Below, piece by piece: positions 11,633 to 23,462 of a stretch of 42,683 nucleotides of DNA; position 1 is the first letter of the stretch, and every line of letters begins with the position of its first letter. The stretch covers positions 1 to 42,683 of the forward strand of contig NZ_JANJUE010000153.1 in NCBI RefSeq assembly GCF_024710765.1, written 5' to 3'. The notes beneath the pieces were generated by a model. The model was not told where the DNA came from. It did not search any database and was given only the letters and a program-made list of their open reading frames with translations. Origin of the DNA: Pseudoxanthomonas sp. GTDB taxonomy: Bacteria; Pseudomonadota; Gammaproteobacteria; Xanthomonadales; Xanthomonadaceae. A program made the position numbers and the translations under genes.

Positions 11633-12418
11633 TTACATCGCGACGCGGCGGGCCTGCATGAAGCGCGGTGCCCAGTAGCCGCTCATCAGGGTGTCCACGC
11701 GCACGTCCTTGCCGGCGCTGGGGGAGTGCAGGAAGCGGCCTTCGCCGACGTAGATGCCGACATGATTGATCCGGCCCTTACGGCCGAAGAACACCAGGTC
11801 GCCCTGCTTGAGCTCGTCACGGCTGGCAATCAGCTGGCCGTTGGCCTGCGAGGCCATGTCACGGGACACGCGCGGCAGTTCGATGCCCAGCGCGGTGCGG
11901 AACACGTAGCCTACCAGGCCGCTGCAGTCGAAACCGCTGTCCGGCGAGGTGCCGCCCCAGCGGTAGGGCGTACCCATCAGGGTCAGCGCGCGCTTGAGTA
12001 CCGTCTGGATCTTGCCTCCCTCGTCCTTGACCACGCCTTCCTGGCTGAGGTCATAGCCGGCCAGGAGGCGGCTGAGGTCGCCGGCCACCATGGTGGAACG
12101 GTCCAGCAGCGGCAGGCTGTCGCTGGCGGCCAGGCGGGGCAGGAGGGCGGTGAGCGTGGCGGTGGCGGCTTCGGCCGCCTTTTCCTTGATGCTGAACGAG
12201 GCCGGCTTGGCGGCTTCGCGGGAAGCGGATTCCGGAGCGACCGCCGTGGCGGTTTCCGCGGAATCGGCCTCGACCGCATCGGCGGTCGGCACATGCTGCT
12301 GGGCCCAAGCGGGGACGCCCGCGGCGGCCAGCAGGATCAGGGAAAGGAATCGGGTCACGCCCCGCGGGATGCGGTGGGTGGCGGCGGGCTGGCCTGGCGG
12401 CAGGTCGTCGGTCGTCAC
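11633..12418 (-). CDS. Exported NlpC/P60 peptidoglycan endopeptidase (first of tandem pair)
   Basis: A 261-residue protein with an N-terminal signal (VTRFLSLILLAAAGVPAWAQ) and an Ala-rich helical region, then a C-terminal NlpC/P60 domain (about residues 130-260): TPYRWGGTSPDSGFDCSGL with the catalytic Cys, INHVGIYVGEGRFLHSPS with the catalytic His, and a following polar residue. Such enzymes cut the D-Glu/diamino acid bond in cell-wall peptides. The annotated GTG start places about 20 residues before the signal peptide; a second GTG at 12358 gives a cleaner signal and may be the true start. Same strand as, and 116 bases downstream of, a second NlpC/P60 gene. Confidence 0.88.
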   Translation of the reverse strand: MTTDDLPPGQPAATHRIPRGVTRFLSLILLAAAGVPAWAQQHVPTADAVEADSAETATAVAPESASREAAKPASFSIKEKAAEAATATLTALLPRLAASDSLPLLDRSTMVAGDLSRLLAGYDLSQEGVVKDEGGKIQTVLKRALTLMGTPYRWGGTSPDSGFDCSGLVGYVFRTALGIELPRVSRDMASQANGQLIASRDELKQGDLVFFGRKGRINHVGIYVGEGRFLHSPSAGKDVRVDTLMSGYWAPRFMQARRVAM

Positions 12419-12534: not shown

Positions 12535-13095
12535 TCAGTGCAGAACCCGTTTGGCGCCGGTGTAGTGGTCGCGCCAGTAGCTGCCGTCCAGATGGTCCAG
12601 CCGGACCGTGCCGCCGGTACTGGGGGCATGCACGAACCGGCCTTCGCCGACGTAGATCCCGACATGGCTGACGCTGCCGCGGCTGCCGAAGAACACCAGA
12701 TCGGCCGGGGCCAGCTTGCGCGGCTCGATGCGCGGCCCCTGGACCCGGGAAAGTTCGCCCGAGGTGCGTGGCAGCTTCAGGTCCAGCATGTCGCGGAATA
12801 CGTAGGCGACCAGCCCGCTGCAGTCGAACCCGGATTCCGGAGTGTTGCCGCCGTAGCGGTAGGGCGTGCCGACCAGGCCGATGGCCCGCATCAGCACGGC
12901 ATTGGCGGCGGCCGGGTCCTCGGCGTCGACCCGGGGCCACTCCCGGGCGGGCGGCGGCGGCGAGCGGCGGACGGTTTCCTTGCCGCCACCGCAGCCGGCC
13001 AGCAGGGCCGTCAGCAACAGCGCGGCCAGGACGACGGCGTGGGGGACCGCGGGTGGCGGCGGGGCGTCCAAGCCGGGATAATGCACGGTCTTCAT
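12535..13095 (-). CDS. NlpC/P60 family lipoprotein (second of tandem pair)
   Basis: A 186-residue cell-wall hydrolase with a lipoprotein signal ending LLTALLAGC, a short Pro-rich linker, and an NlpC/P60 domain closely similar to its neighbour: TPYRYGGNTPESGFDCSGL (catalytic Cys), VSHVGIYVGEGRFVHAPS (catalytic His). It should act on peptidoglycan stem peptides from a membrane anchor, comparable to Spr/MepS. The start MKTVHYPG lies before a 17-residue polar stretch and has no strong ribosome-binding site. The frame extends far upstream across the slyD gene but only this portion has homology. It diverges from slyD across 81 bases. The pair looks like a tandem duplication. Confidence 0.88.
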   Translation of the reverse strand: MKTVHYPGLDAPPPPAVPHAVVLAALLLTALLAGCGGGKETVRRSPPPPAREWPRVDAEDPAAANAVLMRAIGLVGTPYRYGGNTPESGFDCSGLVAYVFRDMLDLKLPRTSGELSRVQGPRIEPRKLAPADLVFFGSRGSVSHVGIYVGEGRFVHAPSTGGTVRLDHLDGSYWRDHYTGAKRVLH

Positions 13096-13732: not shown

Positions 13733-14236
13733 TCAGGGGGCGGGCGTCGCGCCGTCCGCGGGTTCGGGAATGACGGCGATGGCGTCCACTTCGACCCGCA
13801 CGTCCGGCTGGAACAGCGCCTGCACGCCGACCAGCGCGCTGGCGGGCGGGCGCTCCGGATCAATCCAGCGATCCCGCGCCGCCCGTATCGCCGGCAACTG
13901 CGCGGGGTCGAAATCGCGGACATAGATCGTCAATCGCGCCACGTGGGAGAAATCGCTGCCCGCCGCGCGCAGGGTGGCGTCCAGGTTGCGCATCACCTGT
14001 TCCATCTGCGCTTCCAACGAACCTTCCACCACGCTGCCATCCGCACGCAGCGGGACATGGCCGGACAGCAGCAACAGCTTGCCGCCGTCGATGCGCATGG
14101 CCTGGGAGACGTTGGGGATGGTGGCGCCGGGGGGATTGACGGCTTGCAGCATGGTGTCGGGCTCCTGGGCGAACAGGGAGAGGGAATGTCCGGCGAGCAG
14201 CGCCGCCAGACCGAAACAGATGCCGCCAGATTTCAT
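13733..14236 (-). CDS. Exported RidA/YjgF-family protein lacking the catalytic arginine
   Basis: 167 residues: a signal peptide (MKSGG, hydrophobic core, ending LSLFAQ) followed by a complete RidA (YjgF/YER057c) domain with LLLLSGHVPL, the trimer-forming core and the closing VEVDAIAV strand. RidA proper is a cytoplasmic enamine/imine deaminase using an arginine in a P-A-R-x-x-V-E-V pattern. Here the same place reads PASALVGV, Ser133 by hand alignment, so classical deaminase activity is not expected; it resembles the Rid subgroups without Arg. The start overlaps the stop of the preceding isochorismatase-like gene as ATGA, implying coupled translation and a shared process in the periplasm. Confidence 0.85.
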   Translation of the reverse strand: MKSGGICFGLAALLAGHSLSLFAQEPDTMLQAVNPPGATIPNVSQAMRIDGGKLLLLSGHVPLRADGSVVEGSLEAQMEQVMRNLDATLRAAGSDFSHVARLTIYVRDFDPAQLPAIRAARDRWIDPERPPASALVGVQALFQPDVRVEVDAIAVIPEPADGATPAP

Positions 14237-14952
14237 TCGTTCGTCTCCGTCAGTGCGTGGATGACCTCGCCACTGGGCATGGCGTGGCCGAAATGATGGA
14301 CAACCTCGTCGAGCACGTGGGTACGCTGGGCGGTATTGAACGCCGCGCTGGCGTCGTCGACCAGGATGACTTCATACCCCAGGTCATGTGCGGCGCGCAG
14401 CGTCGATTCGACGCAGACGTGCAACGCGAAGCCGGCGATGAGCAGGGTCTTGATGCCCCGGTTGCGAAGGTAACTGTCCAGGTTGGAACCGGCGAAGGCG
14501 CTCGCGCCCAGGCGGCCGCCGACGACGAACTCTCCGGGAACCGGCTGGAAGGGACCGAAGAAATCCGCACCGGTGCCGCGGAACGTCCCCACGCGGGGAA
14601 TGGCTTCGCGCAGGCCATGGCGGGCCTGTCCGAGTTCCGGGTGTCCGGGCTCGAAACGCAGCCCCGAATGGATTATCGGCAGGCCGGCGGTGCGGGCCGC
14701 GTCGAGCAGATGGGCGCCGGCCGTGACGGCATCCGCGAGTTGTGCGCGATCCTGGACCAGGCCATTGAGCTTGCCATCCGCAGCCAGCCATTCGTTCTGG
14801 AATTCGATGAGCACCAGGGCGGTCTGTCCAGCCTGATGGCGTTGCCGCAGCGCCTCCGCGTTGGCGGTGCGAATGCCTGCCGACGCGGAGTCGGTCAACG
14901 CCGCGCACAGGACCGTGGCGCCGAGCACGGCCTGCCAAGGAAAAGGAATCAT
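14233..14952 (-). CDS. Exported isochorismatase-fold cysteine hydrolase
   Basis: 239 residues with a signal peptide (MIPFPWQAVLGATVLCAALTDSASA is its span) and an isochorismatase-like hydrolase domain from about residue 42. The catalytic Cys180 is present in GFALHVCVESTLRAA. The usual catalytic Asp is Glu50 in LVLIEFQNEW, and the usual Lys is Arg147 (VVGGRLGASAF), both by hand alignment. Family members hydrolyse amides or vinyl ethers such as nicotinamide, ureidoacrylate or isochorismate; the substrate here is unknown. The ATG has GGAG 7 bases upstream. It forms a two-gene unit with the RidA-like gene (4-base overlap) and diverges from a LysR regulator. Confidence 0.87.
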   Translation of the reverse strand: MIPFPWQAVLGATVLCAALTDSASAGIRTANAEALRQRHQAGQTALVLIEFQNEWLAADGKLNGLVQDRAQLADAVTAGAHLLDAARTAGLPIIHSGLRFEPGHPELGQARHGLREAIPRVGTFRGTGADFFGPFQPVPGEFVVGGRLGASAFAGSNLDSYLRNRGIKTLLIAGFALHVCVESTLRAAHDLGYEVILVDDASAAFNTAQRTHVLDEVVHHFGHAMPSGEVIHALTETNE

Positions 14953-15053
14953 GGGGTGCTCCAGAGGGATTAGGACGGGAGCCGGCAGACTATTCAGTTC
15001 CATTTGTGCAGGATATGGGTGATTTTTGGATATCAGATTGCAGATTTGGAATC
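14953..15053. promoter_or_regulatory. Divergent promoter region between the LysR gene and its presumed target operon
   Basis: 101 bases, more A/T-rich than its surroundings toward the regulator side. A GATT-N10-AATC dyad (15036-15053), containing the T-N11-A pattern favoured by LysR-type regulators, abuts the LysR start codon. The divergent layout is typical of a LysR regulator acting on the neighbouring operon and on itself. Confidence 0.45.
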
Positions 15054-15950
15054 ATGCTGGACGATCTCGCCCTCTTCATCGCCATCGTCGAAGCCGGCAG
15101 CCTCAATCAGGCGGCCAGACGGCTGGACCTGCCCACGTCCACGCTGACCCGGCGCCTGCAACGGCTTGAGCAGGATCTGGGCTGCAGGCTGCTGCATCGA
15201 AGCGCCCGCCGGATGACCCCCACGGCCGAAGGCTGGCAGTACTACGAACGCAGTCGCCCGCTGGTGCATTCGTTGCAGCAGGCGATGGAGCAACTCGACG
15301 ACAGCCTGCGCGAAGTGAAAGGGCTGTTGCGCGTGCTGGCGCCGGTCAACCTGGCCAATGGCGTGTTCGCCGATGCCTGGAGCGGATTCCTGTCGCGGTA
15401 TCCCCAGGTCCGGCTGGAGTTGCAGCTGAGCAACCAGACCCAGGACCTGCATGCCAGCCATGCCGATCTCGCCATCCGTACCGGCGAGCAGCCCGATTCA
15501 CAGCTGCAGCAGCGCAAGCTGGGCGAGGTGGGTGTCAGGCTGGTGGCATCGCCCGTCTATCTCCGCGATCATGCGCCGCCGGCCACGCCCGCCGATCTCC
15601 ATGCGCATGACATCGTGGTGGCCGAGCCGCTGGCACTCTGGTCGTTCCGCCACCGTGACAGCGGCGAACGCTTCGAATTCAGTCCCGCCGGACGCCTGCG
15701 TGTCAACGATCTGGGCTTGGCGGTCGATGCCGCCCGCAAGGGCATGGGCATCCTGATGTGTCCGCTGAACGCCTGCCAGGCATGGCTGGCCGAGGGAGAA
15801 CTGGTGGAAGTACTGGCGGACTGGCGGCTGCCTGCGCGCGCGGTGTACGCGGTATGGGCGCAACAGCGCTATCTGCCCGCCCGAGTGCGCGCGCTGGTCG
15901 AACACCTCGCCGGATTCGCCAGCGGGCAGGCCCTGCTCCGCTCCCACTGA
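15054..15950 (+). CDS. LysR-family transcriptional regulator
   Basis: 298 residues with the LysR layout: an N-terminal winged helix-turn-helix (LALFIAIVEAGSLNQAARRLDLPTST, span 4-30, then LTRRLQRLEQDLGCRLLHRS) and an effector-binding domain (about residues 90-290). The start at MLDDLALF matches family starts; the frame is open from an upstream GTG at 15006. It is transcribed divergently from the exported isochorismatase-like/RidA-like pair, its most likely target. The effector is unknown; the CrgA/AphB-like sequence of the C-terminal half does not identify one. Confidence 0.92.
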   Translation: MLDDLALFIAIVEAGSLNQAARRLDLPTSTLTRRLQRLEQDLGCRLLHRSARRMTPTAEGWQYYERSRPLVHSLQQAMEQLDDSLREVKGLLRVLAPVNLANGVFADAWSGFLSRYPQVRLELQLSNQTQDLHASHADLAIRTGEQPDSQLQQRKLGEVGVRLVASPVYLRDHAPPATPADLHAHDIVVAEPLALWSFRHRDSGERFEFSPAGRLRVNDLGLAVDAARKGMGILMCPLNACQAWLAEGELVEVLADWRLPARAVYAVWAQQRYLPARVRALVEHLAGFASGQALLRSH

Positions 15951-16013
15951 AAGTGGTGGATGCGCCCCCAGTCCGACATGCTTTAATGCCGACCGGATCC
16001 AGGGAGGAAGGAC

Positions 16014-17288
16014 ATGAACGCCATACCGGCGAATGCAGATGCGCGGCTGCGGCCGGTCGCGGCCAGCGAACGCATCGAAACCATGGATGTGCTGCGCGGT
16101 TTCGCGCTGGTGGGCATCCTGCTGATGAACATCGAGGGCATGGCGGGGCCGCTGTTCGCCTCCTTCACCGGGCTTGACCCCGCCCTGAGCGGCGCCGACC
16201 GGGTTGCCGACGCGCTCATCTACATCTTCGTGCAGGGCAAGTTCTACACCCTGTTCTCGCTGTTGTTCGGCATGGGGTTCGCGGTGATGTCCAGCCGCGC
16301 CGAAGCGCGCGGGCAGCCATTCGCGGGCGTGTACTGGCGGCGCAGCCTGGTGCTGCTGGTCATCGGCGCGATCCACGGCCTGCTGATCTGGTCGGGCGAT
16401 ATCCTGCTGATGTACGCGCTGCTGTCGTTCCTCCTGCTGGCGTTCCGCAACGTATCGACCCGATGGTTGCCATGGCTGGCCGGCCTGGCCTACGTCGCGT
16501 CGTCGGGCATGATGATGCTGATCGGCCTGCTGGGAACGGTCTCGCAACTGGATCCCGCCGCGGCCGCGCAGTGGAACCAGGAAATGGCCAAGGCGGGCGC
16601 GGAAATGAACGCCATGCTGGAGGCCCAGCGCCACGCGTATGGCAGCGGCACCTACCTGGAAGCCGTCGCGCAGCGGGCCCGGGATGTCGGCTTCATGTTG
16701 AGCAACCTGTTGTTCATCGGTCCCACGGTGTTCGGCATGTTCCTGTTCGGCACCTGGTTCGTGACGAGCGGCGCCATCGCCGCGCCGAACGGGCATCCGC
16801 GGCTGTTCGCATGCCTGCGCTGGGGCGCGCTGCCGCTGGGACTGGCCCTGATGTTGTTGTCGTTCCGGATGGAGCCCACCTCGCGTTTCGACAACATCAA
16901 CCTGCATTCATCGACCGCGTTCGCGGCCAGTTCGATCGGCAGCGTGCTGATGGCCTTCGGCTACCTCGGCTGGATCGTGAAGGGGGTGCAGTCGGCCGCG
17001 AGCGCGCCGCTGCTGCATTGGCTGGCGCCTGCCGGCAGGATGGCGCTGACCAACTACCTGATGCAGTCGATCGTGTGCACGTTGATCTTCAACGGCTACG
17101 GCCTGGGCTATCTGGATCAGCTGTCACGCGCCTGGCAGGTGCCATTCGTGTTCGGCCTGTTCCTGATCCAGGTGCTGTACAGCCGCTGGTGGCTGTCGCG
17201 TTTCCGTTTCGGTCCGGCCGAATGGGTCTGGCGGTCACTGACCTATCTGCGCGCGCAGCCGATGCGTCCCAGTCCGGTTTCGGCTTGA
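16014..17288 (+). CDS. DUF418 (YeiB-like) multi-pass membrane protein, paralogue 1
   Basis: 424 residues with about ten membrane segments. Family marks: MDVLRGFALVGILLMNIE near residue 24, VQGKFYTLFSLLFGMGFAVM near 75, and in the C-terminal DUF418 domain LAPAGRMALTNYLMQS followed by YGLGYLDQLSR. Function is unknown; related proteins are proposed to be membrane acyltransferase-like or transport proteins. AGGGAGGAAG precedes the ATG. It follows the LysR gene by 63 bases in the same direction and ends at a terminator. A second copy of the family lies near 22 kb. Confidence 0.9.
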   Translation: MNAIPANADARLRPVAASERIETMDVLRGFALVGILLMNIEGMAGPLFASFTGLDPALSGADRVADALIYIFVQGKFYTLFSLLFGMGFAVMSSRAEARGQPFAGVYWRRSLVLLVIGAIHGLLIWSGDILLMYALLSFLLLAFRNVSTRWLPWLAGLAYVASSGMMMLIGLLGTVSQLDPAAAAQWNQEMAKAGAEMNAMLEAQRHAYGSGTYLEAVAQRARDVGFMLSNLLFIGPTVFGMFLFGTWFVTSGAIAAPNGHPRLFACLRWGALPLGLALMLLSFRMEPTSRFDNINLHSSTAFAASSIGSVLMAFGYLGWIVKGVQSAASAPLLHWLAPAGRMALTNYLMQSIVCTLIFNGYGLGYLDQLSRAWQVPFVFGLFLIQVLYSRWWLSRFRFGPAEWVWRSLTYLRAQPMRPSPVSA

Positions 17289-19096: not shown

Positions 19097-19257
19097 TGGG
19101 TGTCAATGGAAACCATGTGAAGAAAGACAGAGAATGACGGTTACCTTCTCCGGATTACGCTTGACATGTCCGCAGCCGCTGGCGTCGCAAGGACAGGGCA
19201 GCCATTCGATCGGACATGCGTTATTCCATGGGAACGCCTGATGAGCAGACAGCACGC

Positions 19258-20508
19258 ATGAATTCGCGCGACGAGATTCTCATTCTCGGTTCGGGTGCGA
19301 TCGGCCTGTCGACCGCGCTGATGCTGCTGGAAGCGGGGCGCGCGGTTCGCGTGCTTGAAGCGGGCGAGCACATCGGCGCCGGCGCGTCGCACGGCAACTG
19401 CGGCACCATCACCCCCAGCCACGCGCCACCGCTGGCCGCGCCAGGCGTGGTGCGACAGGCGTTGCGCTGGATGCTGACCCCGGACGCGCCGCTGTATCTG
19501 AAACCGCGTGTCGACCCGGCCCTGTGGGGATGGCTGCTGCGCTTCTCCGCGCGCTGCAATCCACGTGACTGGCAGGACAGCGCACGGGCGCGCGCCGCGT
19601 TGCTGGACGATTCGCGCGCGCGGCTTGCGAGGTGGGTCGAACGCTATCCGTTGCAATGCGAGTTCCAGGAAGAAGGGCTGGATTACGTGTTCCGGGATCC
19701 GCGCAATTTCGAGCGATATGTGCACGAATGCGAATCGCTGCGACGGATGGGAATCGCCAGCGAGGTGATCGGCGGGGCCGAATACGAAACCCAGGAGCCG
19801 GCGATGCGCGAAGGCGTCGCCGGCGCGATCCGGTTTTCCGGCGATGCGCGCTTGCGCCCGGATCGTTACGTCGCCGAGCTCGCGCGCGTCGTGCGTGAGC
19901 TCGGTGGGGAAATCGAAACCCGCTGCCGCGTGCTCGGCTTCGAGGACGACCGCGACGGCGTGCGGATCAGCACGTCGCAAGGAATGCGACAAGGACGCGA
20001 AGCGGTGTTCGCGCTGGGTGCATGGACGCCGGCATTCGCGCGCCGGCTTGGCCTGCGCATTCCGATCCAGCCGGGCAAGGGTTATTCGGTGACCTACAGC
20101 CGTCCGCAGCGGGTGCCGAAACGGCCGCTGGTGCTGAAGGACCGCTCGGTCTGCGTGACCGTCTGGGACAGCGGCTTCCGCCTGGGCAGCACGATGGAAT
20201 TTTCCGGCTACGACGATCACCTCAACGACGTCCGCCTGGCGGCGCTGGAGCGCGGCGCGCGCGAGTTCCTGCATGACCCGGTCGGCGATGTCGTGCAGGA
20301 ACGCTGGTGCGGCTGGCGGCCGATGACCTGGGACGACCTGCCCCTGCTCGGCCGCGTGCCGCGACATCCGCGCCTGTGGCTGGCCGCCGGCCACGGCATG
20401 CTCGGCATCAGCATGAGCGCCGCCACCGGCCAATTGATGGCCGACCTCATCACCGGCCAGGCGCCGGCGTTCGATCCCTTTCCCTATCGACCGGAGCGTT
20501 TTTCATGA
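19258..20508 (+). CDS. FAD-dependent D-amino acid dehydrogenase-like oxidoreductase (DadA family)
   Basis: 416 residues with an N-terminal FAD-binding Rossmann motif (ILILGSGAIGLSTALML followed by the acidic VLEAG) and the closing FAD contact LWLAAGHGMLGISMSAATG. WCGWRPMTWDDLPLLGR is typical of the DadA/glycine-oxidase group, which oxidises D-amino or imino acids such as D-hydroxyproline and passes electrons to the respiratory chain. The start is uncertain: ATGs at 19216, 19228 and 19258 are in frame; this one fits family N-termini but none has a strong ribosome-binding site. Its stop overlaps the start of the glutathione reductase gene (ATGA). No racemase or other catabolic partner is nearby. 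Confidence 0.85.
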   Translation: MNSRDEILILGSGAIGLSTALMLLEAGRAVRVLEAGEHIGAGASHGNCGTITPSHAPPLAAPGVVRQALRWMLTPDAPLYLKPRVDPALWGWLLRFSARCNPRDWQDSARARAALLDDSRARLARWVERYPLQCEFQEEGLDYVFRDPRNFERYVHECESLRRMGIASEVIGGAEYETQEPAMREGVAGAIRFSGDARLRPDRYVAELARVVRELGGEIETRCRVLGFEDDRDGVRISTSQGMRQGREAVFALGAWTPAFARRLGLRIPIQPGKGYSVTYSRPQRVPKRPLVLKDRSVCVTVWDSGFRLGSTMEFSGYDDHLNDVRLAALERGAREFLHDPVGDVVQERWCGWRPMTWDDLPLLGRVPRHPRLWLAAGHGMLGISMSAATGQLMADLITGQAPAFDPFPYRPERFS

Positions 20509-21992: not shown

Positions 21993-23462
21993 ATGCAGCA
22001 GGACGTTTCCGCAACCGCCACGCCCGCGCCCACGGAGACGGGCGCCGCGCTGACCCCCATCGACGCGGGCGAGCGCATTGCCGCGCTGGACGTCATCCGT
22101 GGCTTCGCCCTGATCGGCATCTTCCTGATGAACGTGGAGTGGTTCACCCGCCCGATCAGCGAACTGGGTCGTGGCATCGATCCTTCGCTGCATGGGCTGG
22201 ACTACGCGGTGAGCTGGGGGGTGTACGTGCTTGTCCAGGGAAAATTCTGGACCCTGTTCTCGCTGTTGTTCGGGATCGGTTTCGCGGTGATGCTGGGGCG
22301 CGCGGAGAGCCGCGGCCGGGCGTTCGTGACGCCCTACCTGCGGCGCATCCTTGGATTGATGCTGTTCGGCATCGCCCACTTCATCCTGATCTGGACCGGC
22401 GACATCCTGCACAACTACGCCATCACCGCGCTGGCCCTGCTGCTGGTGGTGACCCGAAGCTGGAAGCTCTGGCTGGGCATCCTGCTCTCGTTCGTGGTTG
22501 CCTCCATCGCCCTGAAGTCAGACGCGCTGGGAGCATCCATCGCCGTGCTCGTGCTGGTCGGCGTGCTGATGTTCTTCCTCAATCGCGGCAGCCTGGCGCG
22601 CTGGTGGAAGTGGGGCGTGACCCTGTATTCGCTGATGTTCGTGCTTGGCCTGGTTGGCGCGGGCGTGACCGCGGTGTACCCGCAGATCCGCTCGCCGGAA
22701 ACCGCGGAGCAGACCAGCAAACGCCAGGAGCGATTGGCGGAAAGGGCGAAGGAGCGGGTCGAGGAGATTCGCATCGACAGCCGCGGCACCTACGCCGAAG
22801 CGGTCCGTTACCGCGCCGGCAAGTTCGCCGAGGACATCCAGGGCGCGGCCGGCCTGAGCTTCATGGCCTTGCCGATGTTCATGATCGGATTCTGGTTCGT
22901 CCGCGCCGGCGTGATTGCGCGCCTGCGCGATCATGCGGCCCTGTTCCGCCGGCTGGCGACATGGACCTTGCCGGTCGGCATGGCCCTGACCTTGCTGAGC
23001 GTATGGATGGTGCCGAGCTTCCCCGGCGACGGACTGGGAGGCCGGGACCCGGCGCGAATGGCGGCGATGTCGTTGTTCCAGCTGGGGGCGCTGCTGCTGT
23101 GCCTGGGCTACTTCGCCGGCATGGTCCTGTTGCTGGGAACGCGGATGGGCCGCTGGTTGGCGCCGTTGGGATACGCGGGCCGGATGGCGCTGACCAACTA
23201 CATCGGCGCGTCGCTGGCGGGCACCCTGTTTTTCTTTGGCTATGGCCTGGGCTACTGGGGCCAGTTGTCCCGGCCCGGGCAAATGGCGTTCGTGGCGGTG
23301 GTGTTCGCGTTGCAGGTGGGCTTCAGTTACCTGTGGCTGCGCCACTTCCGCTATGGACCGCTGGAATGGGCCTGGCGCGCGCTGACCTACTGGCAGTGGC
23401 CGGTGATGCGTCGTTCCCGGAACGTCGCGGCCGGCGCGGATGGAACGGTGCATCCGGCCTGA
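21993..23462 (+). CDS. DUF418 (YeiB-like) multi-pass membrane protein, paralogue 2
   Basis: 489 residues; same family as the protein encoded at 16 kb. Matching marks: LDVIRGFALIGIFLMNVE, VQGKFWTLFSLLFGIGFAVM, LGYAGRMALTNYIGAS and YGLGYWGQLSR. It is about 65 residues longer, mainly through an Arg/Glu-rich soluble loop in the middle (about 235-280, with KRQERLAERAKERVEE) between membrane segments. Function unknown. A GCAGGAGAG site precedes the ATG. It stands 126 bases after gor in the same direction. Confidence 0.9.
   Translation: MQQDVSATATPAPTETGAALTPIDAGERIAALDVIRGFALIGIFLMNVEWFTRPISELGRGIDPSLHGLDYAVSWGVYVLVQGKFWTLFSLLFGIGFAVMLGRAESRGRAFVTPYLRRILGLMLFGIAHFILIWTGDILHNYAITALALLLVVTRSWKLWLGILLSFVVASIALKSDALGASIAVLVLVGVLMFFLNRGSLARWWKWGVTLYSLMFVLGLVGAGVTAVYPQIRSPETAEQTSKRQERLAERAKERVEEIRIDSRGTYAEAVRYRAGKFAEDIQGAAGLSFMALPMFMIGFWFVRAGVIARLRDHAALFRRLATWTLPVGMALTLLSVWMVPSFPGDGLGGRDPARMAAMSLFQLGALLLCLGYFAGMVLLLGTRMGRWLAPLGYAGRMALTNYIGASLAGTLFFFGYGLGYWGQLSRPGQMAFVAVVFALQVGFSYLWLRHFRYGPLEWAWRALTYWQWPVMRRSRNVAAGADGTVHPA

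What the first reader, a model, noticed from the sequence alone, without database searches (positions are those of the whole stretch)
13733..15053. Exported isochorismatase-like/RidA-like pair with substituted catalytic residues under a divergent LysR
Two genes overlap by 4 bases (ATGA), and both products carry signal peptides. One is an isochorismatase-fold hydrolase, the other a RidA-fold protein. The cytoplasmic Rut pathway pairs the same two folds (RutB, RutC) for pyrimidine breakdown, but there neither is exported and other rut genes are present. Here, by hand alignment, the hydrolase keeps its Cys (180) but has Glu50 for the catalytic Asp and Arg147 for the Lys, and the RidA-like protein has Ser133 where the deaminase arginine should be. 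A two-protein periplasmic module with altered chemistry and its own LysR regulator does not match any pathway I know.
Basis: partly seen in the sequence, partly recalled or inferred. Interest (0 to 1): 0.72.

Follow-up and report, generated by a model that had tools for sequence, protein, structure and literature searches.

The report
Rare regulated hydrolase–RidA gene pair
Two overlapping genes beside their own regulator encode members of a rare, uncharacterised branch of a well-known hydrolase family and an exported RidA-type protein; the pairing recurs in distant bacteria, so it probably does something useful, but both proteins belong to known families and what they act on is unknown.

Summary
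In detail: an isochorismatase-fold hydrolase (HYD, 14233-14952, -) overlaps a RidA-fold gene (RID, 13733-14236, -) by ATGA, beside a divergent LysR (15054-15950, +). The residue calls are right (Glu50, Arg147, Cys180; Ser133), but "substituted" misleads. Glu-Arg-Cys is present in 24 of 24 distinct loci examined: it is the signature of a rare subfamily, not local decay. Ser instead of Arg is in print for about 10% of RidA proteins. RID export is well supported; HYD export is plausible but weaker (no charged n-region).

The pair is not a one-off. RID lies next to HYD in 5 of the 24 loci and as a relic in a sixth, in three HYD clades, with different regulators (LysR, GntR, MerR). Inside the window's genus, however, HYD was found only in this genome, and two relatives carry RID alone at the same site. 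HYD shows no signal in three of the six pair loci, so a two-protein periplasmic module is not the general rule. RutA was not found.

Best reading: an inducible, mobile Cys-amidohydrolase plus exported RidA-like helper acting on an external amide/ureide-type compound; substrate unknown. New variant of known kinds, modest interest.

The parts
13733..14236 (-). RID: RidA/YjgF-fold protein, 167 aa, Sec-type signal peptide, Ser133 at the RidA arginine position, Glu149 kept
14233..14952 (-). HYD: isochorismatase-like cysteine hydrolase, 239 aa, Glu50-Arg147-Cys180, probable signal peptide (residues 1-25)
14233..14236 (-). ATGA overlap: start of RID and stop of HYD
14953..15053 (.). divergent HYD/LysR promoter region; a 42-bp block at the LysR side is shared with the Solimicrobium LysR/HYD intergenic region
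   Evidence: local score 29; 0 of 2000 shuffles of the window stretch reach it, best shuffle 28, a narrow margin
15054..15950 (+). LysR-family regulator, 298 aa from the ATG at 15054 (an in-frame GTG lies at 15006)
   Evidence: 59% identical to the LysR beside HYD in Solimicrobium
14152..15975 (.). segment (RID signal-peptide codons, HYD, LysR) without DNA match at this site in the two sister genomes, which have about 206 bp there

Best explanation
A small inducible, horizontally moving enzyme module. LysR, reading from a shared divergent promoter, senses a small compound and turns on HYD and RID as one transcript. HYD is a cysteine-nucleophile amidohydrolase of the isochorismatase-like superfamily that uses Glu50 and Arg147 in place of Asp and Lys, and cuts an amide/ureide-type bond of an external compound, probably in the periplasm here. 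RID, exported by Sec, binds or speeds the breakdown of the unstable product, or mops up a reactive by-product, as RutC does after RutB. Shown: genes, overlap, folds, residue conservation, recurrence of the pair, conserved promoter block. Inferred: export of HYD, catalysis, order of reactions, inducer, and the class of substrate.
For: Glu-Arg-Cys in 24 of 24 distinct loci down to about 41% identity, in a clade with full support apart from eight same-genus relatives that carry Asp. HYD model pLDDT 86.6; nearest folds are 3kl2 (TM by target length 0.85-0.90), then triuret hydrolase, biuret hydrolase and RutB, which cleave amides or ureides. RID adjacent to HYD in 5 of 24 HYD loci plus one relic, although RID occurs in only 5 of 398 phylum genomes (E<=1e-22). 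Overlapping stop/start also in L015 (4 bp) and L020 (8 bp). RID next to HYD has an in-frame signal-like start in 4 of 5 intact pairs; in L020 both proteins have Tat-type starts. A regulator lies adjacent to HYD in 12 of 24 loci and one or two genes away in 8 more, of seven families.
Against: HYD shows no signal in L015, L045 and L019 although RID there has one (out of frame in L045), so the two need not meet in one compartment. In 18 of 24 loci HYD has neither RID nor its relic beside it. On the RID tree the paired members are not clustered (4 changes; 287 of 500 shuffles as low). Two sister species keep RID without HYD or LysR. The HYD n-region lacks positive charge. I saw no pathway gene, transporter or substrate clue that is conserved. 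Rid proteins without the arginine have no detectable deaminase activity according to PMC8113886 (passages).
Confidence: 0.42

Rival explanations
1. HYD is a stand-alone inducible stress or detoxification hydrolase; RID is a frequent but functionally independent operon passenger.
For: 18 of 24 HYD loci lack a subfamily RID or relic beside HYD; HYD instead sits with glutathione S-transferase and/or SDR genes in five alphaproteobacterial-type loci (L026, L027, L028, L030, L031), with a carboxymuconolactone-decarboxylase-family gene in L017, under many regulator families. RID stands without HYD in the stretches held for G012, G036, L034, L035, L036 and L038.
Against: RID is rare (5 of 398 genomes), yet found beside HYD in three HYD clades, with overlapping genes in three loci; chance adjacency of two rare genes is improbable.
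Confidence: 0.33
2. HYD acts on isochorismate or another non-amide compound, as true isochorismatases do, and export aims it at host or rival metabolites.
For: Fold shared with the isochorismatase domains of AngB and VibB; an isochorismatase-fold protein is a proposed effector of a plant-parasitic nematode, with a Cys-Asp-Lys triad and complementation of an E. coli entB mutant (PMC7694671, passages), so a Cys does not rule isochorismate out.
Against: Nearest characterised folds are triuret, biuret and ureidoacrylate amidohydrolases, and isochorismatases rank lower. Bacterial isochorismatases such as EntB lack the nucleophilic Cys that is invariant here (recalled).
Confidence: 0.1
3. A relocated Rut-like pyrimidine step: HYD is a RutB and RID a RutC.
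For: Same two folds, adjacent (Rut pathway from passages of PMC8113886).
Against: RutB model 63.6 bits against a cut-off of 377.95, RutC 25.8 against 169.1; RutA not found in the genome, while the control search rang in E. coli among 6 of 14 control genomes; triad and deaminase arginine differ.
Confidence: 0.04
4. One or both proteins are catalytically dead and act as binding proteins or sensors.
For: Both differ from the textbook catalytic residues.
Against: Invariance of Glu/Arg/Cys plus Asp68, Arg87, His95 and Glu182 over 24 loci argues for retained catalysis in HYD. For RID the possibility stays open.
Confidence: 0.11

Closest known systems
3kl2, putative isochorismatase of Streptomyces avermitilis (structure only)
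   Same: Best sequence and fold match to HYD; Glu in place of Asp; Asp68, Arg87, His95 and the Cys-Val-Glu-Ser-Thr motif shared
   Different: Keeps Lys where HYD has Arg; about 35% identical; I know of no tested function (the one paper found that names 3kl2 uses it as a modelling template)
Triuret hydrolase TrtA and biuret hydrolase BiuH (isochorismatase-like hydrolases)
   Same: Fold, Cys nucleophile position, probable amide chemistry
   Different: Asp-Lys-Cys triad (PMC7948467, passages); BiuH model scores 77.6 bits against a cut-off of 370; the word Rid does not occur in the main text of PMC7948467
RutB/RutC of the Rut pathway
   Same: The same two folds encoded in one operon; RutC acts on the RutB product (PMC8113886, passages)
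   Different: Far under the RutB and RutC cut-offs, no RutA found; RutC needs its arginine, which RID lacks
RidA family with Ser at the arginine position; structure 5v4f (Yersinia Rid-family protein)
   Same: RID fold and sequence; Ser reported in about 10% of RidA-subfamily proteins (PMC4433059, passages); 5v4f also lacks the arginine and shares the Gly-Val-Gln-Ala-Leu stretch
   Different: RID has a signal peptide and scores 63.9 bits against the TIGR00004 cut-off of 106.25

Membership tests
Isochorismatase-like hydrolase superfamily (PF00857) | Profile score over the curated cut-off | tested here: met
   128.1 bits, cut-off 27
Isochorismatase-like hydrolase superfamily (PF00857) | Asp-Lys-Cys triad | tested here: not met
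   Glu50-Arg147-Cys180 by alignment to 6xix; Cys met, Asp and Lys replaced by residues of like charge in 24 of 24 subfamily loci
RutB | NCBIfam TIGR03614 cut-off | tested here: not met
   63.6 against 377.95 bits
RutC | NCBIfam TIGR03610 cut-off | tested here: not met
   25.8 against 169.1 bits
Rut pathway | RutA present in the genome | tested here: not met
   No match at E<=1e-5 in the window's assembly (listed as 99.88% complete); control rang in 6 of 14 genomes, E. coli among them, over the cut-off in 2
Biuret hydrolase BiuH | NCBIfam NF050097 cut-off | tested here: not met
   77.6 against 370 bits
RidA-fold family (PF01042) | Profile score over the curated cut-off | tested here: met
   85.1 bits, cut-off 27.3
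RidA deaminase (TIGR00004) | Curated cut-off | tested here: not met
   63.9 against 106.25 bits
RidA deaminase (TIGR00004) | Catalytic arginine (Arg105) | tested here: not met
   Ser133 at that position, and Ser in every RID-type match listed
Rid4 to Rid7 subgroups | Subgroup footprint residues (CDD) | not testable with these tools
   CDD models not held; absence of arginine alone fits several subgroups and also the Ser-bearing minority of RidA (PMC4433059, passages)
LysR-type regulator | HTH_1 and LysR_substrate domains | tested here: met
   72.8 and 131.9 bits
Sec-exported protein (HYD) | Charged n-region, hydrophobic core, Ala-X-Ala | tested here: inconclusive
   Core and Ala-Ser-Ala present by eye, no charge; crude test only
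Sec-exported protein (RID) | Charged n-region, hydrophobic core, cleavage motif | tested here: met
   By eye and by the crude scan; signal-like N-terminus also in two sister species; SignalP itself not available

The most novel reading that the evidence does not exclude
A previously undescribed family of mobile, inducible periplasmic detoxification modules in which a Glu-Arg-Cys amidohydrolase and an arginine-less, exported RidA-type protein together dismantle an external nitrogenous compound, with a new catalytic role for the Ser-type RidA fold.
Probability: 0.18. Interest if true: 0.6.

Novelty: new variant of a known kind. Interest (0 to 1): 0.36.

Why it matters
In the papers seen, Rid-family proteins without the deaminase arginine have no deaminase activity and no known function (passages). 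A gene pair that repeatedly joins such a protein, usually exported, to a hydrolase that can be assayed gives a direct handle: find the hydrolase's substrate and test whether its product is what the RidA-like protein acts on. The Glu-Arg-Cys subfamily is also a clean test of how far the isochorismatase-like triad can shift.

Tried and rejected
Rejected: Rut membership; local decay of catalytic residues; one-off in this genome, though HYD was found in no other of the 37 genomes of the genus searched. Alternative positions for Asp/Lys/Arg were looked for by alignment to solved structures and not found.

Led nowhere: plasmid searches gave HYD relatives without RID in the three regions opened (3 of 40 records), RID relatives without HYD in the two opened (2 of 10 records), two already known records with the L020 RID, 18 records with the L020 HYD of which none was opened for it, and none with the L015 HYD at E<=1e-50. 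Paper searches combining isochorismatase with RidA and periplasm or signal peptide, Rid7, biuret, LysR/operon, or triad residues listed no paper on this pair as far as titles, counts and abstract starts show (open-licence PMC papers only). The HYD tree has 9 of 29 inner branches open; the pair label needs four changes on it (26 of 500 shuffles as low), so one origin with losses and several origins are both possible; the RID tree is nearly unresolved and shows no clustering of the pair. My signal-peptide scan is crude and its automatic cleavage-site column missed sites visible by eye.

Not done: structure of the complex, SignalP, AlphaFold DB search, subgroup assignment by CDD.

Full report
What is there. 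Two minus-strand genes, HYD (14233-14952) and RID (13733-14236), overlap by ATGA; a LysR gene (15054-15950, +) is divergent from HYD with a 101-bp gap. Pfam places them in PF00857, PF01042 and the LysR families well over the cut-offs. Of 20 other window ORFs scanned, four matched nothing and the rest are ordinary: NlpC/P60 proteins, an FKBP-type isomerase, DUF418 proteins, peptidases, transporters, enolase, CTP synthase and the like.

Residues. HYD Glu50, Arg147 and Cys180 align with Asp24, Lys129 and Cys162 of triuret hydrolase (numbering from PMC7948467, passages). These are not local changes. Loci L001, L032, L044 (the window itself), L024 and L047 (taken as L012, same match) and L048 (as L026) were dropped before counting. 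All 24 carry Glu, Arg and Cys, with Asp68, Arg87, His95 and Glu182. Eight same-genus relatives at 33-36% identity carry Asp and fall on the other side of a fully supported branch. 3kl2, the nearest structure by sequence and fold, has Glu with Lys, an intermediate state. The triad keeps its charges, so catalysis by the Cys remains the natural reading; PMC7948467 assigns to Lys the lowering of the Cys pKa by its positive charge, which Arg could also do (inference).

RID has Ser133 at the RidA arginine, and Ser is found in every RID-type match listed. Niehaus et al. 2015 (PMC4433059, passages) state that about 10% of RidA-subfamily proteins have Ser there and that Rid4-7 lack the arginine. RID is under the TIGR00004 cut-off, so I leave its subgroup open. 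The genome has 9 matches to PF01042, RID among them. Of seven others looked at, the aligned residue was Arg in two, Trp in two and Ser in one; the best RidA match (L049) and L051 gave no residue. RID is therefore unlikely to be the housekeeping RidA (inference).

Recurrence. L018 has a much more distant signal-bearing Rid-like gene, also with Ser, about 390 bp downstream; I do not count it. The other 18 loci have neither. The stop/start overlap recurs in L015 (4 bp) and L020 (8 bp). The paired HYDs fall in three places of the HYD tree (4 changes; 26 of 500 shuffles as low), while on the RID tree the paired members are not clustered (4 changes; 287 of 500 shuffles as low). Both genes are rare at the thresholds used: HYD in 6 of 398 phylum genomes (E<=1e-35), 3 of 369 of the class and 2 of 385 of the class of G088 (profile, E<=1e-55); RID in 5 of 398 phylum genomes (E<=1e-22), 2 of 119 of the family of G439 (E<=1e-25) and 2 of 203 of the class (profile, E<=1e-35). 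The window's genome is counted in all of these but, and some other genomes occur in more than one sample. Repeated adjacency of two rare genes is not chance, though the sample was drawn through HYD and this is not a formal test.

Compartment. RID next to HYD has a Sec-like (window, L015, L019) or Tat-like (L020) N-terminus in frame, 4 of 5; in L045 a signal-like stretch lies upstream in another frame (partly by eye). RID not next to HYD has one in G012, G036 and L034 but not in L035, L036 or L038; L039 is unclear (partly by eye). HYD has a Tat-type N-terminus in L020 and L021, a probable but uncharged one in the window, and none in L015, L019 and L045 (L045 by eye). So export of RID is the steadier feature of the pair.

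Regulation. A regulator lies directly beside HYD in 12 of 24 loci (LysR, MerR, GntR, MarR, cNMP-binding Crp-type, HxlR) and one or two genes away in 8 more (MerR, AraC, LysR); in 4 I recognised none (L011, L012, L028, L046). Pfam was run on the regulators of nine loci (window, L014, L015, L017, L018, L019, L022, L025, L029); L025 is just under the cNMP_binding cut-off (26.8 against 27.5) but 34% identical to the L018 protein. L010, L013, L016, L020, L021, L023 and L045 follow by similarity, L030 and L031 by record annotation, L026 and L027 by eye. Window and Solimicrobium share LysR (59%), HYD (70%) and a 42-bp promoter block whose score (29) none of 2000 shuffles reached, the best being 28. 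HYD is thus typically a locally regulated gene whose regulator family differs between lineages, which suits an inducible catabolic or detoxifying enzyme (inference).

History. Of 37 genomes of the genus searched with HYD, the window's included, only the window's has the subfamily; of 38 searched with RID, three have it. In the other two (G012, G036) RID, 83-84% identical, stands at the same site between the FKBP-type isomerase and DUF418 genes, but 14152-15975 of the window (RID signal codons, HYD, LysR) has no DNA match there, about 206 bp taking its place; their best LysR matches elsewhere are 35% identical. Either LysR-HYD was lost there or was gained here with the start of RID exchanged. 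GC3 of HYD, LysR and RID (0.79-0.84) is below that of the two neighbours measured (0.885 and 0.894), mildly in favour of gain.

Structure. HYD model pLDDT 86.6; best PDB matches 3kl2, then TrtA, BiuH and RutB. RID model, from four sequences, mean pLDDT 72.1 with residues 1-44 under 50 and a better core; best matches 2csl and 5v4f. These confirm folds, not function.

Precedent for export. I found no paper describing this pair (listings). PMC5053998 (passages) describes a ridA gene in an operon with an amino-acid oxidase predicted to be Tat-exported, and mentions a RidA-type subunit with a periplasmic oxidase in an alga, so an extracytoplasmic RidA is itself not new.

Verdict. Function remains an inference.

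Noticed in passing
   Followed up: partly
   Followed up: no
L021:3567-3713: 48-codon remnant of RID between a MerR gene and HYD in Thauera linaloolentis: the pair seems to be decaying.
   Followed up: partly
L045, about 1400-1500: A signal-like stretch upstream of RID is out of frame with it; real frameshift or sequencing error not decided.
   Followed up: no
window 16014-17288 and 21993-23462: Two DUF418 membrane-protein genes about 5 kb apart; short stretches of the second match the sister-genome copies of the first at about 68-72% DNA identity.
   Followed up: no
window 11633-12418 and 12535-13089: Two NlpC/P60-family genes in tandem, both with apparent export signals by eye.
   Followed up: no
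window 19216-20508: FAD-dependent oxidoreductase (DAO family) about 4 kb from the pair; RidA proteins are linked to amino-acid oxidases elsewhere, but nothing ties the two here.
   Followed up: no
L017:3046-4474: MerR, carboxymuconolactone-decarboxylase-family and HYD genes in a row in an uncultured Photobacterium.
   Followed up: no
genome locus L055: Another RidA-fold gene of the same genome also shows Ser at the arginine position in a weak alignment (30% identity).
   Followed up: no
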